Shown here: piece by piece, positions 1-5,325 of the stretch | Numbering within the stretch: the first letter of the stretch is position 1 | How the letters are laid out: every line of letters starts with the position of its first letter | Assembly (NCBI GenBank): GCA_020629335.1 | Contig: JAHDDN010000259.1 | Coordinates: forward strand, 2,144 to 7,468 | Length of the DNA stretch: 5,325 nucleotides | Reading direction: 5' to 3' | Source of the DNA: Chitinophagales bacterium | GTDB taxonomy: Bacteria; Bacteroidota; Bacteroidia; Chitinophagales; UBA2359 | The notes under the pieces: generated by a model | Told to the model about the DNA's origin: nothing | The model's database searches: none | Seen by the model: only the letters and a program-made list of their open reading frames with translations | Position numbers and translations under genes: made by a program

Positions 1-30
1 AAAAAAACTCCGTTTGATGTTAAATTATTG

Positions 31-149: not shown

Positions 150-1196
150 TTAAGAATTTTCAGGTCTTAAATTTCGAACTTGTTGGCCTGCTTGCCAGAG
201 TTCGGATTCTCTTAGTTCTGATAATTCCTCCTCCAATTTATCTCGATAGTTTAGTTGAGAGTTTGCGTCGATTACGACTTTAGCTTCTTTCCCTGATGCA
301 ACTCTTTCGTAAAGGTCTTCGAAGACAGGTAAGGTGGCAGCTTTGAATTTATGTCGCCAGTCTAATGCCCCTCTTTGGGCGGTTGTAGAAGTATTGGCAT
401 ACATCCAATCCATACCATTTTCTGCGACTAATGGCATTAAGCTTTGTGTCAGTTCTTCTACAGTTTCATTGAAGGCTTCGGATGGTGAGTGGCCGTTTTT
501 TCTTAGTACTTCATATTGTGCTTCAAATAAGCCAGCTAATGCGCCCATCAGGATGCCTCTTTCTCCTGTTAAGTCGGAATAGACTTCTTTTTTAAAGTCT
601 GTTTCGAAAAGGTAACCTGAGCCAACTCCAATGCCCAAAGAAACAACTTTTTCATAAGCTTTACCTGTGGCGTCTTGATAGATTGCATAACTTGAGTTGA
701 GTCCTTTACCAGCCAAAAAGAGTCTTCTTAGAGAGGTCCCAGATCCTTTAGGGGCTACTAATATCACATCTACATCTTTGGGAGGAATAATACCTGTTTG
801 GTCAGAATACGTGATTCCAAATCCATGTGAGAAATAAAGTGTATTACCTGGTTCGAGATTCTTCTTCACTATTTCCCATTGGGCCATTTGTCCTGCATCA
901 GAAAGTAGATACTGAATAATGGTTCCTCTTTGGGCTGCTTCCTCTAATTCAAATAAAGTTTCGCCTGGTACCCATCCGTCAGCGACCGCTTTATCCCAGC
1001 TTTTTGAATTTTTTCTTTGTCCTACGATTACATTAAATCCATTATCTTTTAGATTTAGTGATTGTCCTGGTCCTTGGACGCCATAGCCTAATATGGCGAT
1101 AGTTTCGTCTTTTAAAGTGTTAAGTGCTTTATCGAGAGGAAATTCTTCTCGTGTTACTACATTTTCTTCTATTCCTCCAAAATTTAATTTCGCCAT
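150..1196 (-). CDS. ilvC: Ketol-acid reductoisomerase IlvC (fungal Ilv5-like form)
   Basis: NAD(P)H- and Mg-dependent alkyl migration and reduction of acetolactate or acetohydroxybutyrate to the dihydroxy acids used by IlvD. The protein has 348 residues. The N-terminal Rossmann domain carries GYGVQGPGQ (37-45). The cofactor-specificity loop GQRKNSKSW has Arg61, Ser64 and Ser66, which suggests NADPH. Catalytic candidates are His124 (SHGFG), Lys150 (APKGSG), Asp208 and Glu212 (SDLTGERG), Glu244 and Glu248 (FNETVEE) and Ser270 (NTSTTAQRGA). The single C-terminal knotted domain and length exclude the long class II form of E. coli. GERG in place of the common bacterial GEQ, and the ending LRPENS, recall fungal mitochondrial and other eukaryotic enzymes. 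Last gene of the operon, 32 nt after ilvN, followed by a hairpin and a terminator. ATG at 1196 is the only sensible start (MAKLNFGG). Confidence 0.97.
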   Translation of the reverse strand: MAKLNFGGIEENVVTREEFPLDKALNTLKDETIAILGYGVQGPGQSLNLKDNGFNVIVGQRKNSKSWDKAVADGWVPGETLFELEEAAQRGTIIQYLLSDAGQMAQWEIVKKNLEPGNTLYFSHGFGITYSDQTGIIPPKDVDVILVAPKGSGTSLRRLFLAGKGLNSSYAIYQDATGKAYEKVVSLGIGVGSGYLFETDFKKEVYSDLTGERGILMGALAGLFEAQYEVLRKNGHSPSEAFNETVEELTQSLMPLVAENGMDWMYANTSTTAQRGALDWRHKFKAATLPVFEDLYERVASGKEAKVVIDANSQLNYRDKLEEELSELRESELWQAGQQVRNLRPENS

Positions 1197-1228: not shown

Positions 1229-1762
1229 TTAATAGGCATTAGCCAATTCTATTTCTGCTAGAAACTCTTTGAATTCTTTCATGGGTTTAGAAATGGCAAT
1301 TCTGCCAGAGCGAACAAATTCTAATAACCCAAAAGGAGAAAGCAGTTCGTATAGTTCTTGCGTTTCTTCTTTGTGACCTGTTTTTTCAAGGATGGTAAAT
1401 TCTTGCTCTATGGCCAATACTCTTGCTTGATAGGATCGAATAATTTTCTCTACACTTCCTCCAGTGATTAATGAGGAGGTGGGTAATTTATACATCGCAA
1501 TTTCTTGATAGACCATTTCTTCATTTCGATGAAAAAATGCTTTGAGTACATCTACTTGTTTTTCTATTTGTTTAGTAATTTTCTTTACAAGTTCTTCAGT
1601 TATGCTCACTACAAAGGTGAAACGATGTACTCCTTTAACTTCGCTTTCAGAAACGGTCAGACTTTCTATATTTATATGGCGTCTTGTAAAAACGCCGCAG
1701 ATTCTACTGAGTAGTCCAACCTTATTTTCTGAAAATACGGATATGATAAATTGATTTTTCAT
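1229..1762 (-). CDS. ilvN: Acetolactate synthase small, regulatory subunit IlvN
   Basis: Regulatory partner of IlvB that raises its activity and usually confers feedback inhibition by valine. Residues about 4-78 form an ACT domain (FIISVFSENKVGLLSRICGV, then NIESLTVSES). Asn13, Gly16 and Asn31 align with the residues that bind valine in E. coli IlvH (Asn11, Gly14, Asn29), so valine sensitivity is plausible. Residues about 85-160 match the C-terminal acetolactate synthase small-subunit domain (YQARVLAIEQEFTILEKTG, then LLSPFGLLEFVRSGRIA). Its 177 residues are usual for the longer IlvH-type subunits, in contrast to the roughly 95-residue IlvN of E. coli. It starts 7 nt after the ilvB stop, as expected for subunits made in step, and the start has A-rich sequence rather than a Shine-Dalgarno motif. 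The symbol ilvH would be equally correct. Confidence 0.95.
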   Translation of the reverse strand: MKNQFIISVFSENKVGLLSRICGVFTRRHINIESLTVSESEVKGVHRFTFVVSITEELVKKITKQIEKQVDVLKAFFHRNEEMVYQEIAMYKLPTSSLITGGSVEKIIRSYQARVLAIEQEFTILEKTGHKEETQELYELLSPFGLLEFVRSGRIAISKPMKEFKEFLAEIELANAY

Positions 1763-1769
1763 TTGGTTT

Positions 1770-3503
1770 TTATTTTAATCTTATGTCTGAAATTGAGGCT
1801 CCTGTTGGCACCATTGGGAATACATTATTTTCTTTTCCTACCAATACTTCCAGCAACCTACTTTTGGGATGATTGACAAATCTATCTAAGGCCGCTGATA
1901 AGTCTGCTCTTGCTGATACTTTTTCTGCATCCATATAATAGCCTTTAGCGATTGTTTGAAAATCGGGGTTTAGCATTTCTGTGGAAGCATATCTCTTATC
2001 AAAGAACAACTCTTGCCATTGTCTCACCATTCCTAAGAATTCATTATTGAGGATTAGAATTTTAACATCCAATTGAGTTTGAAATATAGTCGCTAATTCT
2101 TGAATGGTCATTTGAAAACCTCCATCTCCTATGACTGCGATTACAGTCCGTTCAGGAGCGGCCAGTTTGGCTCCTATGGCTGCTGGTAAAGCAAAACCCA
2201 TGGTTCCTAAACCACCAGAGGTAATATTGCTGCGCCATTTAGAAAATTGGTAGTAGCGTTGTGCGATCATTTGATGCTGTCCTACATCTGTGACTATAAT
2301 GGCTTCCCCATTGGTTTTCTCAGACATCAAATTGATCACTTCTCCCATAGAAATTGGTTTATTCTCGATTGGATTCAATTCATTTTTAATGACTGTATCA
2401 AATTCCTTTTGATCGCATAATTTAAATCTTTGAAGCCAATCTTTATGTTCCTTTTTATCTACTAACTCAGTTAATTGGGCTAAAGTCTTTTTACAGTTTC
2501 CAAGTACAGGAACATCAGCATGAACATTTTTATTTATCTCAGAAGGATCAATTTCCAAATGAATGACTTTAGCTTGTTTTGCATAGTAATCTAAATTTCC
2601 TGTTACTCTATCATCAAAGCGCATTCCTACTGCTATTAGTACATCACACTCATTGGTCAGTAAATTGGGGCCATAGTTGCCATGCATTCCTAACATCCCA
2701 ACATTGAGTGGGTGAGCATCTTCCAGAGCAGATAAACCCATGATCGTCCATGCAGCAGGCAAGCCTGCTTTTTCGATAAATGCTTTGAACTCTTCTTCCG
2801 CTTCTGCCAGTAATACTCCTTGACCAAACAATACCAAGGGCTGCTTAGCCTGATTAATTAATGCGGCTGCACTTTCCAATGCATTATTAAGAATTAAAGG
2901 TTCTGGAACATAGCTTCTAATAGTAGTACAAGTCTTATATTCAAACTCAAAGCTATCCAATTGGGCATCTTTTGTTATATCCACCACGACTGGACCTGGT
3001 CTTCCGCTATTGGCTATATAAAAAGCTTTGGCGATAGCTGTAGGAATGTCTTCCGCCCTTGTCACTTGGACATTCCATTTGCAGACGGGGGTTGATATTC
3101 CGACTATATCTGTTTCTTGAAATGCATCCGAACCTAATAGCGTACTTGCTACTTGACCTGTTATGCAAACTAAGGGGGTAGAATCTATTTGTGCATCTGC
3201 AATACCAGTAATTAAATTGGTAGCTCCTGGGCCTGAAGTAGCTAAACAGACCCCAACTTTACCCGATATTCGGGCATATCCTTGAGCAGCATGTGTAGCT
3301 GCTTGTTCATGGCGAACTAATATGTGTTGTAATTGATTCTGGTAATCGTATAGCACATCGTAGACAGGCATAATTGCTCCTCCAGGATAACCAAATAAGA
3401 TGTCTACCTTTTCTTCCAGTAAGCATTTGATTAATGCTTCAGCTCCTGTCATTAATTGGGTGGTTTTTTCCAGCTCCAACTTTGTTGCATTTTTCACTTC
3501 CAT
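1770..3503 (-). CDS. ilvB: Acetolactate synthase (AHAS) large, catalytic subunit IlvB
   Basis: Thiamine-diphosphate enzyme that condenses two pyruvates to 2-acetolactate, or pyruvate with 2-oxobutyrate to 2-aceto-2-hydroxybutyrate: the committed step of the pathway. With 577 residues it has the usual length. The N-terminal ThDP domain begins at TGAEALI (19-25) and includes FGYPGGAI and the catalytic Glu66 in RHEQAA. The central domain contains RFDDRVTG (295-302). The C-terminal ThDP domain has GDGGFQMT starting at 459 and ending in Asn486-Asn487, the Mg-ThDP motif. Trp496 in VRQWQELFF corresponds to the conserved herbicide-site tryptophan of AHAS, which distinguishes it from related pyruvate oxidases. 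Two starts are possible: ATG at 3524, overlapping ilvD by 19 nt, or ATG at 3503, 2 nt after the ilvD stop in TAATTATG. The latter is preferred because it gives tight coupling without a non-conserved extension. The partner subunit gene ilvN starts 7 nt downstream. Confidence 0.96.
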   Translation of the reverse strand: MEVKNATKLELEKTTQLMTGAEALIKCLLEEKVDILFGYPGGAIMPVYDVLYDYQNQLQHILVRHEQAATHAAQGYARISGKVGVCLATSGPGATNLITGIADAQIDSTPLVCITGQVASTLLGSDAFQETDIVGISTPVCKWNVQVTRAEDIPTAIAKAFYIANSGRPGPVVVDITKDAQLDSFEFEYKTCTTIRSYVPEPLILNNALESAAALINQAKQPLVLFGQGVLLAEAEEEFKAFIEKAGLPAAWTIMGLSALEDAHPLNVGMLGMHGNYGPNLLTNECDVLIAVGMRFDDRVTGNLDYYAKQAKVIHLEIDPSEINKNVHADVPVLGNCKKTLAQLTELVDKKEHKDWLQRFKLCDQKEFDTVIKNELNPIENKPISMGEVINLMSEKTNGEAIIVTDVGQHQMIAQRYYQFSKWRSNITSGGLGTMGFALPAAIGAKLAAPERTVIAVIGDGGFQMTIQELATIFQTQLDVKILILNNEFLGMVRQWQELFFDKRYASTEMLNPDFQTIAKGYYMDAEKVSARADLSAALDRFVNHPKSRLLEVLVGKENNVFPMVPTGASISDIRLK

Positions 3504-3505
3504 AA

Positions 3506-5179
3506 TTATTTGTCTGTTATACATCCTTGAGATGCTGATGAAACATTTTTAGCGTATTTGTAAAGCGTACCACGTTTTACTTTTAGGGGTGGTACTTCCC
3601 ATTTTTCTCTTCTTGTTTTGATTTCTTCTTCGCTTAATTTCACATCGATGGTATTCGCTTCTGCATCAATGGAGATTTCATCTCCATCTTCCAATAAGGC
3701 AATCATACCACCCACTTGGGCTTCGGGTGTAATATGCCCAACGACAAAGCCATGAGTACCACCAGAGAATCGGCCATCTGTGATTAATGCCACCTCTTTG
3801 CCTAAGCCTGCTCCTACTATGGCTGCAGTAGGCTTGAGCATTTCTGGCATACCTGGTCCTCCTTTCGGGCCTTCATATCTAATGACTACTACTTCTCCTT
3901 TCTTGACTTGACCAGCGGCAATTCCAGCGTTTGCATCCCATTCACTATTGAATACCTTAGCCGTTCCTGTAAATTTCAAGCCCTCTTTACCAGTGATTTT
4001 GGCTACTGCTCCTTCTTCTGCTAAGTTGCCATATAGGATGCGAATATGCCCACTATCTTTCAAGGCTTTTTCTACTGGGTAGATGACCATTTGCCCTGTG
4101 GATAGTGCTGGTAAATCTTCTAAGTTTTCTGATAAGGTTTTACCACTTACTGTTAGGCAGTCGCCATTCAGTAAGCCCTTTTCTAATAAGTATTTCATTA
4201 CAGCTGGGGTGCCTCCTACTTCGTGTAAGTCTTCCATTAAGTATTGACCGCTTGGTTTTAGGTCAGCTAAATAGGGCGTCTTATCGCTGATCGCTTGGAT
4301 ATCTTCTAAGGTAAATTCTATATTAGCCGCATCTGCTATGGCTAAAAAGTGTAAGACAGCATTGGTTGATCCTCCTAGTGCCGTTACTATTGTCAGGGCA
4401 TTTTCTAAGGAGCTTTTAGTGATAATATCGGAGGGTTTGATATCCTTTTTGATTAACTCCATTAAAGCTTCTCCTGCCCTTTCACACTCTAATTGTTTGG
4501 CTTCTCCTTCGGCTGGATTAGAGGCATTATAGGGTAAGGAAAAACCCAGCGCTTCTATGGCAGCTGCCATGGTATTAGCGGTATACATACCTCCACAAGC
4601 GCCTGCTCCTGGACAGGCTTTTTGAATCACTGACTTAAACTCTTCTTCTTCGATTTTACCTGCTACTCTTTCTCCCCATGCTTCAAAGGCAGATACAATA
4701 TCTAACTTGCGATTATTCAAATGGCCTGCTGCAATCGTACCACCATAAACTAAAATGGAAGGTCGATCTAATCGCAACATGGCCATGAGTGCGCCTGGCA
4801 TATTTTTATCACAACCGACAACTGTTAGCAAGCCATCATAGCTCATTCCTTCTACTACTGATTCCATTGAGTCAGCGATTAAGTCTCTGGACGGCAACGA
4901 GTAACGCATGCCTGGTGTACCCATTGAGATGCCATCGCTTATTCCTATGGTATTGAATACCAGTCCTACTCCTCCTGAGTCATTGACCCCTTTCTTGGCT
5001 ATTTGAGCCAAAAGGTTTAAGTGCATATTGCAGGGGTTTCCTTCATAGCCAGTACTTCCAATTCCTATGAGCGGCTTATTAAAGTCCTCCTCTTTTAAGC
5101 CTATGGCATACAGCATCGCTTGTGCGGCTGGCTGGCTGGGATCTTGGGTGACTCGTTTACTAAATTTGTTATAATTCAT
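3506..5179 (-). CDS. ilvD: Dihydroxy-acid dehydratase IlvD
   Basis: Dehydrates 2,3-dihydroxy-isovalerate and 2,3-dihydroxy-3-methylvalerate to the 2-oxo acids that precede valine and isoleucine; cytosolic. The protein has 557 residues, typical of the shorter [2Fe-2S] IlvD/Edd-type enzymes. Cys50 (GNPCNMH), Cys123 (VGCDKNMPG) and Cys195 ([15 protein letters not shown]) are the expected cluster ligands. Lys125 is the expected carbamylated, metal-binding lysine. Ser472 in [10 protein letters not shown] matches the proposed catalytic base. The cluster type is inferred from length and motifs. The ATG at 5179 ([12 protein letters not shown]) is chosen because the longer frame back to a GTG at 5221 would begin inside the attenuator hairpin and add a low-complexity stretch. 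The start is preceded by AGAAAG and A/T-rich sequence, with no strong Shine-Dalgarno motif. It is the first structural gene of the operon, directly behind the attenuator, and ends 2 nt before the preferred ilvB start. It is intact. Confidence 0.97.
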
Positions 5180-5201: not shown

Positions 5202-5241
5202 AAAAAAAAAGCCCTTCTCACATATTGAGAAGGGCTTTTTT
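5202..5241 (-). terminator. Intrinsic terminator of the ilv leader (attenuator)
   Basis: On the minus strand GCCCTTCTCA (5235-5226), loop ATATG, and TGAGAAGGGC (5220-5211) form a perfect 10 bp stem. Flanking A6 and T runs extend it to 16 bp, and nine consecutive T (5210-5202) follow. This is a textbook Rho-independent terminator, placed between the Ile/Val leader peptide and the ilvD start only 22 nt further on. A terminator upstream of the first structural gene and just after a leader peptide makes sense only as a conditional attenuator. It could also work in the opposite direction, because the plus strand carries six T (5236-5241) after the same stem. Confidence 0.93.
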
Positions 5242-5260
5242 ATCATAAATTAGACATATT

Positions 5261-5267
5261 CTTCTCA
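5261..5267 (-). promoter_or_regulatory. Antiterminator strand of the ilv attenuator
   Basis: Four nucleotides after the leader-peptide stop, the minus strand reads TGAGAAG (5267-5261). It is complementary over 7 bp to CTTCTCA in the first arm of the terminator (5232-5226) and repeats the sequence of the terminator's second arm. If the ribosome stalls on the Ile/Val codons, this strand is free and can capture the first arm, so the terminator cannot form and ilvD is transcribed. If the ribosome reaches the stop codon, its footprint should cover this strand and the terminator forms. The pairing is seen directly; the switch mechanism is inferred from known attenuators. Confidence 0.7.
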
Positions 5268-5271
5268 CTCA

Positions 5272-5325
5272 TTAGATAATAATGACGACAATAATGCTAA
5301 TAATAGATATGATAGTATTTTGATT
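5272..5325 (-). CDS. Ile/Val-rich attenuator leader peptide (5' end outside window)
   Basis: The frame running into the window from the right edge reads NQNTIISIISIIVVIII and ends at TAA (5274-5272). Nine Ile and two Val codons fill 11 of the last 13 positions. All three Ile codons occur (ATT, ATC and the usually rarer ATA), and there is no Leu codon. No ATG lies in this frame inside the window, so the start is beyond 5325. A short peptide stacked with the end-product amino acids of the operon behind it, followed at once by a terminator, is the hallmark of ribosome-mediated attenuation, as in the enterobacterial ilv leader peptides. The peptide itself is expected to have no function; translation speed over 5275-5313 is the signal. 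Shortage of charged tRNA-Ile or tRNA-Val should stall the ribosome here. The only alternative is a longer real gene ending here, which is unlikely given the composition and the adjacent terminator. Confidence 0.88.
   Translation of the reverse strand, partial: NQNTIISIISIIVVIII

What the first reader, a model, noticed from the sequence alone, without database searches (positions are those of the whole stretch)
5272..5325. Unannotated Ile/Val leader peptide controlling the ilv operon
The 17 codons visible before the stop read NQNTIISIISIIVVIII, with 11 of the last 13 encoding Ile or Val, just ahead of a terminator and ilvD. Gene finders normally miss such a peptide. Ribosome-mediated attenuation is best known in Proteobacteria and has been predicted comparatively in Bacteroidetes/Chlorobi, so this is probably an example of a known principle in a little-tested lineage.
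Basis: partly seen in the sequence, partly recalled or inferred. Interest (0 to 1): 0.75.

Follow-up and report, generated by a model that had tools for sequence, protein, structure and literature searches.

The report
Ile/Val leader-peptide attenuator before ilvD
A short run of isoleucine and valine codons followed by a stop-signal hairpin sits just ahead of a bacterial isoleucine/valine-making operon and most likely lets a slowed ribosome switch the operon on when those amino acids run short; it is a well-supported new example, in the phylum Bacteroidota, of a control principle already known from other bacteria.

Summary
On the minus strand, 5325-5275 reads NQNTIISIISIIVVIII, then two stops, then 30 nt after the first stop a perfect 16-bp terminator (5241-5205), then ilvD-ilvB-ilvN-ilvC. 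The window ends before the start codon and its genome is not held, so I tested relatives. Of 178 usable ilvD upstream regions, 85 have a short Ile/Val-rich reading frame followed by an intrinsic terminator. The relatives with the most similar leaders (L081, L082, L087) start with ATG, which puts the window's ATG most likely at 5328-5326. The segment after the peptide can pair with the terminator's 5' arm (antiterminator) and with the Val/Ile codons (protector). Both pair better within a locus than after swapping partners between loci (0 of 2000 permutations each). Best explanation: classical ribosome-mediated transcription attenuation by Ile/Val-tRNA supply. Leader-peptide attenuation has been suggested in Flavobacterium psychrophilum (PMC9723704, passages), so this is a new member of a known kind. 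More unusual, 10 of 86 loci with a unit carry two in tandem. No experiment was done.

The parts
5275..5325 (-). leader-peptide codons NQNTIISIISIIVVIII (5' end cut by the window; start codon predicted at 5328-5326, outside)
   Evidence: translation; relatives L081, L082, L087
5272..5274 (-). stop codon TAA of the leader
5269..5271 (-). second in-frame stop TGA; part of the protector pairing
5280..5288 (-). region 1: TCG + TCATTA within the Val-Val-Ile-Ile codons, predicted to pair with 5274-5269 and 5267-5265 (protector 1:2)
   Evidence: fold; 1:2 partner-swap test
5261..5267 (-). region 2: TGAGAAG, antiterminator segment, complementary to CTTCTCA (5232-5226) of region 3
   Evidence: identical in L081, L082, L087
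5226..5241 (-). region 3: terminator 5' arm AAAAAAGCCCTTCTCA
5205..5220 (-). region 4: terminator 3' arm TGAGAAGGGCTTTTTT; loop 5225-5221; T run 5210-5202
3506..5179 (-). ilvD, dihydroxy-acid dehydratase
   Evidence: TIGR00110 755.9 bits, above cut-off
1770..3500 (-). ilvB, acetolactate synthase large subunit (stretch scanned; the listed ORF runs from 3524)
   Evidence: TIGR00118 716.7 bits, above cut-off
1229..1762 (-). ilvN/ilvH, acetolactate synthase small subunit
   Evidence: TIGR00119 and NF008864, above cut-off
150..1196 (-). ilvC, ketol-acid reductoisomerase
   Evidence: TIGR00465 313.7 bits, above cut-off

Best explanation
A ribosome-mediated transcription attenuator of the ilvDBNC operon. 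RNA polymerase transcribes a leader encoding a peptide of about 18 residues that is mostly Ile and Val. If charged Ile- and Val-tRNA are plentiful, the ribosome reaches the tandem stops (5274-5269) and covers region 2, the terminator 5241-5205 forms, and transcription ends before ilvD. If either is scarce, the ribosome stalls on the Ile-Ile-Val-Val-Ile codons (5295-5281) and covers region 1 but not region 2. TGAGAAG (5267-5261) then pairs with CTTCTCA (5232-5226) before region 4 is made, the terminator does not form, and the operon is read. Without translation the protector 1:2 forms and the terminator stays on. Shown by computation: the sequence, the ORF in relatives, the terminator, and locus-specific 1:2 and 2:3 pairings. 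Inferred: the start codon of this copy, transcription from an upstream promoter, coupling of ribosome and polymerase, and the response to Ile/Val.
For: Ile/Val run and stops, not expected by chance. Whole leader with terminator folds with z -4.86. With region 1 masked and region 4 not yet made, the RNA folds into the 7-bp 2:3 helix, -7.9 kcal/mol; unmasked it folds with 1:2. Relatives: >=7 Ile/Val in 10 residues in 53 of 109 upstream regions, mean 0.5 in 20 shuffled sets, 2 in reverse complements. L081 MKRNINIIINIIVVIIQCTT, L082 MKRYINIITVIIIVVIIQ, L087 MNTNFSIISIIIIVVIIQCTT, with TGAGAAG and CTTCTCA invariant among these and the window. Six of the seven best ilvD matches have a unit. Terminator starting 0-60 nt after the stop in 95 of 103 leaders, 2-6 in ten dinucleotide-shuffled sets. 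Partner-swap test on 96 units: 2:3 -9.11 vs -7.01, 1:2 -15.56 vs -11.64 kcal/mol, 0 of 2000 permutations each; own partner better than the mean of others in 70 and 77 of 96. The 96 units have 95 different peptides. Val codon GTC, which takes part in 1:2 in the window, is 56% of Val codons in leader runs but 14% in ilvD of the same 50 loci. Downstream genes make Ile and Val.
Against: The start codon is outside the window. 93 of 178 relatives show no such unit by my criteria; 41 of those have an open frame of 60 or more codons ending within 120 nt of ilvD and so may have ilvD inside an operon, but 52 do not, and 8 of the 85 with a unit have such a frame too. L083, a close ilvD match, lacks a leader; 2 of 9 best phylum matches have a unit, and none of the last 16 loci of the phylum sample (L224-L239). 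Locus by locus, the contiguous 2:3 helix beat shuffled spacers at 0.05 in only 32 of 62 units (window 0.045), and in several it was no better than chance, e.g. L001 0.96, L124 first unit 0.88, L132 0.985, L138 second unit 0.995. In the window, once region 4 is present the terminator wins in the minimum-energy fold even with region 2 free, so antitermination must be kinetic. Promoter signal is weak. The swap test is not corrected for kinship. Transcription-translation coupling in Bacteroidota is assumed, not shown.
Confidence: 0.89

Rival explanations
1. The Ile/Val-rich frame is the C-terminal tail of an unrelated upstream gene (for example a membrane segment), and the hairpin is simply that gene's terminator; ilvD has its own promoter after it.
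For: The frame is open at the window edge; the hairpin is a normal strong terminator.
Against: In L081, L082 and L087 the same run starts at an ATG with an in-frame stop 6-19 codons further upstream, giving 18-21 residue ORFs; across units, 68 of 95 have an in-frame stop within 15 codons before the start. The run recurs with different peptide sequences but similar spacing to the terminator (15-45 nt, median 28) in 96 units, and pairings 1:2 and 2:3 are locus-specific, which a plain gene end does not predict.
Confidence: 0.04
2. The leader is translated, but control is at translation of ilvD or through Rho or RNA stability rather than by intrinsic termination.
For: ilvD starts only 22 nt after the T run, so effects on its start are conceivable (sequence).
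Against: A perfect stem with 9 T after it, with a terminator after 95 of 103 leaders in relatives and an antiterminator partner, is what transcription attenuation needs; in the fold the ilvD-proximal bases are mostly unpaired. This rival was not tested further.
Confidence: 0.05
3. A ligand-binding RNA (riboswitch) or T-box controls the terminator and the short ORF is incidental.
For: A terminator with competing structures exists.
Against: No Rfam family reaches its gathering score in the window, nor at the leader in the 16 relatives searched (the single hit, a SAM-II riboswitch in L005, lies elsewhere on the other strand). The best sub-threshold match is a ribosome-mediated one, Thr_leader, 34.3 bits against 55, which is not a membership claim. 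Ile/Val identity recurs in 95 different peptides.
Confidence: 0.02

Closest known systems
ilv operon attenuators of enterobacteria (ilvGMEDA and ilvBN leader peptides; recalled, from no call)
   Same: Branched-chain-rich leader peptide, protector 1:2, antiterminator 2:3, terminator 3:4, in front of branched-chain biosynthesis genes
   Different: Different phylum and operon order (ilvD first); shorter leader (recalled); region 2 pairs with region 3 over only 7 bp here; Bacteroidota ribosomes largely start without Shine-Dalgarno pairing (recalled)
Leader-peptide attenuation upstream of amino-acid operons in Flavobacterium psychrophilum (PMC9723704, passages seen)
   Same: Same phylum, same proposed mechanism
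   Different: In the passages seen no ilv operon is named (the terms ilv and isoleucine do not occur in the main text) and no antiterminator or covariation test is described
Conserved uORF upstream of ilvBNC in Corynebacterium (PMC10272879, search listing only)
   Same: Short reading frame controlling an ilv operon outside Proteobacteria
   Different: Actinobacteria; first gene ilvB
Tandem attenuators of Salmonella mgtCBR (PMC3641672, search listing only)
   Same: Two short ORFs in one leader, as in 10 of my loci
   Different: A Mg2+ transport/virulence operon; there the two ORFs answer different signals (recalled), here both units are Ile/Val-rich before a biosynthesis operon

Membership tests
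Ribosome-mediated transcription attenuator of an amino-acid operon | Short ORF rich in codons for the amino acids made by the operon | tested here: met
Ribosome-mediated transcription attenuator of an amino-acid operon | Start codon and short length of that ORF in this copy | tested here: inconclusive
   outside the window; present in relatives L081, L082, L087
Ribosome-mediated transcription attenuator of an amino-acid operon | Intrinsic terminator between leader and first gene | tested here: met
Ribosome-mediated transcription attenuator of an amino-acid operon | Antiterminator 2:3 exclusive with the terminator | tested here: met
   met as a group, but 30 of 62 units do not reach 0.05 on their own
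Ribosome-mediated transcription attenuator of an amino-acid operon | Protector 1:2 overlapping the regulatory codons and exclusive with 2:3 | tested here: met
Ribosome-mediated transcription attenuator of an amino-acid operon | Read-through that responds to charged tRNA and needs leader translation | not testable with these tools
   needs reporter or transcript data
Rfam Thr_leader (RF00506) | Score at or above the gathering threshold | tested here: not met
   34.3 bits against 55

The most novel reading that the evidence does not exclude
Ile/Val leader attenuation is an ancestral or repeatedly gained control of ilv operons across Bacteroidota, a phylum where coupling of ribosome and polymerase is little studied, and in some lineages (10 of 86 loci with a unit) two complete leader-terminator units stand in series, each with its own Ile/Val peptide, giving a two-stage attenuator with a steeper response than a single one.
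Probability: 0.5. Interest if true: 0.6.

Novelty: new member of a known kind. Interest (0 to 1): 0.42.

Why it matters
Ribosome-mediated attenuation only works if the leading ribosome follows the polymerase closely. A recurrent set of such attenuators in Bacteroidota is therefore indirect evidence for transcription-translation coupling at leaders in a phylum whose ribosomes largely start translation without Shine-Dalgarno pairing (recalled), and it gives a simple reporter to test it. It also points to an unannotated small peptide in many genomes and to how their ilv operons are likely controlled.

Tried and rejected
One search read the minus-strand loci in the wrong orientation; its counts were discarded and redone. 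Promoter scans gave little: TAnnTTTG within 130 nt in 15 of 94 units, 9.3 expected; TTG-17..23-TAnnTTT 14 of 94, 7.3 expected; TAnnTTTG 8-60 nt upstream 11 of 95, 3.8 expected; TAnnTTT there 26 of 95, 26.4 expected. The promoter motif is the one named in the finding. Shuffled spacers one locus at a time gave 32 of 62 at 0.05, so the partner-swap test across loci was added. Rfam at a lax threshold lists 47 matches on both strands, none at its gathering score; none is used as evidence of membership.

Literature: searches (leader peptide, attenuation, Bacteroidetes, ilv; attenuator, leader peptide, isoleucine, Bacteroidota) returned no paper holding all terms; some searches gave listings, from which passages of PMC7366714, PMC12121999 (not relevant), PMC9723704 and PMC4833913 were seen. 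No paper was read whole. The comparative study by Lopatovskaya and colleagues (2010) was seen only as a citation in PMC4833913; that it covers Bacteroidetes I could not see.

Rows left out: of the 80 loci, 29 were looked at and 24 entered the counts, all taken as Bacteroidota-type although L011 is titled Alcanivoracaceae. Not counted: Bacillota, Acidobacteriota and other non-Bacteroidota loci, Marinicella/Lysobacterales (L015, L016, L017, L042), L039, and L003 (L090 is the same place and is counted). L089, L096 and L098 were dropped as duplicates of L001, L004 and L007; L092 and L107 as too short. L001 and L002 come from one MAG and have nearly the same leader. From (265 of 398 genomes with a match) 30 loci and 60 regions were used; (217 of 296) 29 new loci and 40 regions. 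These were picked by hand from the listed, best-matching places, not at random. No two of the 178 regions are identical over their last 150 nt; 11 pairs are near-duplicates.

Full report
Observation. On the minus strand the last 54 bases of the window read NQNTIISIISIIVVIII followed by TAA, then a second in-frame TGA. Eleven of the last 13 residues are Ile or Val. Given the Ile+Val fraction of the four enzymes downstream (0.136), this has a probability of 1.8e-8 per stretch, and no other frame in the window has even 9 of 13. Thirty bases after the first stop comes a 16-bp hairpin with a 5-base loop (5241-5205) and nine T (5210-5202), then 22 bases, then ATG at 5179 of ilvD. NCBIfam models above their cut-offs name the genes ilvD, ilvB, ilvN/H and ilvC.

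What the window cannot show. The frame is open at 5325 and no whole genome is held for the window. The best ilvD matches found are 75-77% identical. Of the seven best (L081-L087), six have a leader-terminator unit and L083 has none. Three have leaders most like the window's and begin with ATG: L081 MKRNINIIINIIVVIIQCTT, L082 MKRYINIITVIIIVVIIQ, L087 MNTNFSIISIIIIVVIIQCTT, with an in-frame stop 10, 6 and 19 codons further upstream. Comparing L087 with the window puts the missing ATG directly before the first visible codon, at 5328-5326. That position is an inference from peptide length and similarity.

Recurrence. I collected upstream regions of ilvD from relatives: 109 usable loci, mostly from the family of a Saprospiraceae-titled MAG, and 69 from a search across its phylum. 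A short ORF with at least 7 Ile/Val in 10 residues lies within 600 nt of ilvD in 53 of 109; 20 dinucleotide-shuffled sets gave a mean of 0.5 (maximum 2) and the reverse complements 2. In the phylum sample it is 22 of 69 at that threshold and 31 of 69 at 6 in 10 (no shuffle control was run on that sample). A terminator begins within 60 nt of the stop in 95 of 103 leaders; ten shuffled sets gave 2 to 6, and 19 of 440 random windows from leaderless loci had one. Counting complete units (leader plus terminator), 56 of 109 and 29 of 69 loci have one. The distance from stop to terminator is 15-45 nt, median 28. The 96 units have 95 different peptides. Distribution in the phylum sample is patchy: 2 of the 9 best matches (L171-L179), all 19 of L180-L198, and 8 of the remaining 41 (L199-L239), with none in L224-L239. 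Several of L180-L198 are close kin. The sample was picked from good ilvD matches, so prevalence figures hold for this sample only.

The switch. Classical attenuation needs two more pairings. In the window TGAGAAG (5267-5261) can pair with CTTCTCA of the terminator's 5' arm (antiterminator, 2:3), and TCG+TCATTA within the Val-Val-Ile-Ile codons pairs with TGA (5267-5265) and TAATGA (5274-5269) (protector, 1:2), which uses up the first bases of region 2. Folding with region 1 covered and region 4 not yet made gives 2:3 (-7.9 kcal/mol); folding the free nascent RNA gives 1:2. With region 4 present the terminator is far more stable, so 2:3 must act by forming first. Both pairings were tested across 96 units: the spacer pairs with its own terminator arm at -9.11 kcal/mol on average against -7.01 after swapping arms between loci, and the Ile/Val run with its own spacer at -15.56 against -11.64; none of 2000 permutations reached either observed value, and the own partner beat the mean of the others in 70 and 77 of 96. 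An example by eye is L084, where the spacer has GAGAATGG and the arm CCATTCTC instead of the window's TGAGAAG and CTTCTCA. Taken singly, 32 of 62 units beat shuffled spacers at 0.05 for a contiguous 2:3 helix; several, such as L001, L002, L132 and the second unit of L138, show none better than chance. Val is written GTC in 56% of leader-run Val codons but in 14% in ilvD of the same 50 loci, and Ile ATT in 79% against 51%. In the window GTC-ATT is part of the 1:2 pairing, so codon choice may be constrained by the protector as well as by the amino acid. The permutation test does not correct for kinship and is not a formal covariation test.

Mechanism. With a ribosome covering about 12-15 nt ahead of the A site (recalled), stalling on the Ile-Ile-Val-Val-Ile codons (5295-5281) covers region 1 and leaves region 2 free, which gives read-through; a ribosome at the stops covers region 2 and gives termination; no ribosome gives 1:2 and termination. 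The core IIVVII is present in the window, L081, L082 and L087. The last Ile codons are probably too close to region 2 to allow 2:3, so the middle codons should matter most; this is a prediction.

Known or new. The mechanism is the classical ribosome-mediated attenuation of ilv operons (recalled for enterobacteria). In this phylum, a transcriptome paper on Flavobacterium psychrophilum states that strong clues for leader-peptide attenuation were found upstream of operons for amino-acid biosynthesis (PMC9723704, passages), and one on Bacteroides thetaiotaomicron mentions short ORFs reminiscent of such leaders (PMC7366714, passages). So the window is a new member of a known kind. My searches of the open library found no paper joining ilv, leader peptide, attenuation and Bacteroidetes, or attenuator, leader peptide, isoleucine and Bacteroidota; most subscription papers are not covered.

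The less ordinary part. Ten of 86 loci with a unit (the window counted among the 86) have two complete units in series before ilvD, each with an Ile/Val-rich peptide and a terminator: L012, L040, L086, L088, L097, L099, L100, L124, L138, L143. Tandem attenuators are on record for Salmonella mgtCBR (PMC3641672, search listing). A single search for tandem attenuators with leader peptides (three papers listed) showed no case of two in-series units for the same amino acids before a biosynthesis operon. Whether the window's operon has a second unit further upstream cannot be seen.

Verdict. Observation confirmed, interpretation supported, function not tested by experiment.

Noticed in passing
L012, L040, L086, L088, L097, L099, L100, L124, L138, L143, upstream of ilvD: Two complete Ile/Val leader plus terminator units in series before ilvD.
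   Followed up: partly
L137, L152, L159, L119, upstream of ilvD: Several leader peptides end in a shared GGWY/EGWY/EEWY tail; it seems to arise because the antiterminator segment GGATGGT or GAATGGT is read in frame, region 2 overlapping the leader's last codons.
   Followed up: partly
   Followed up: no
   Followed up: no
L005 5517-5435, minus strand: A SAM-II riboswitch above the gathering score (55.8 against 44) near the ilvD locus of Flavivirga rizhaonensis, on the opposite strand.
   Followed up: no
L011: A contig titled Alcanivoracaceae MAG carries an ilvD 67% identical to the window's, with an Ile/Val leader MNLIQINIVVIIILVLIR; either a binning error or transfer.
   Followed up: no
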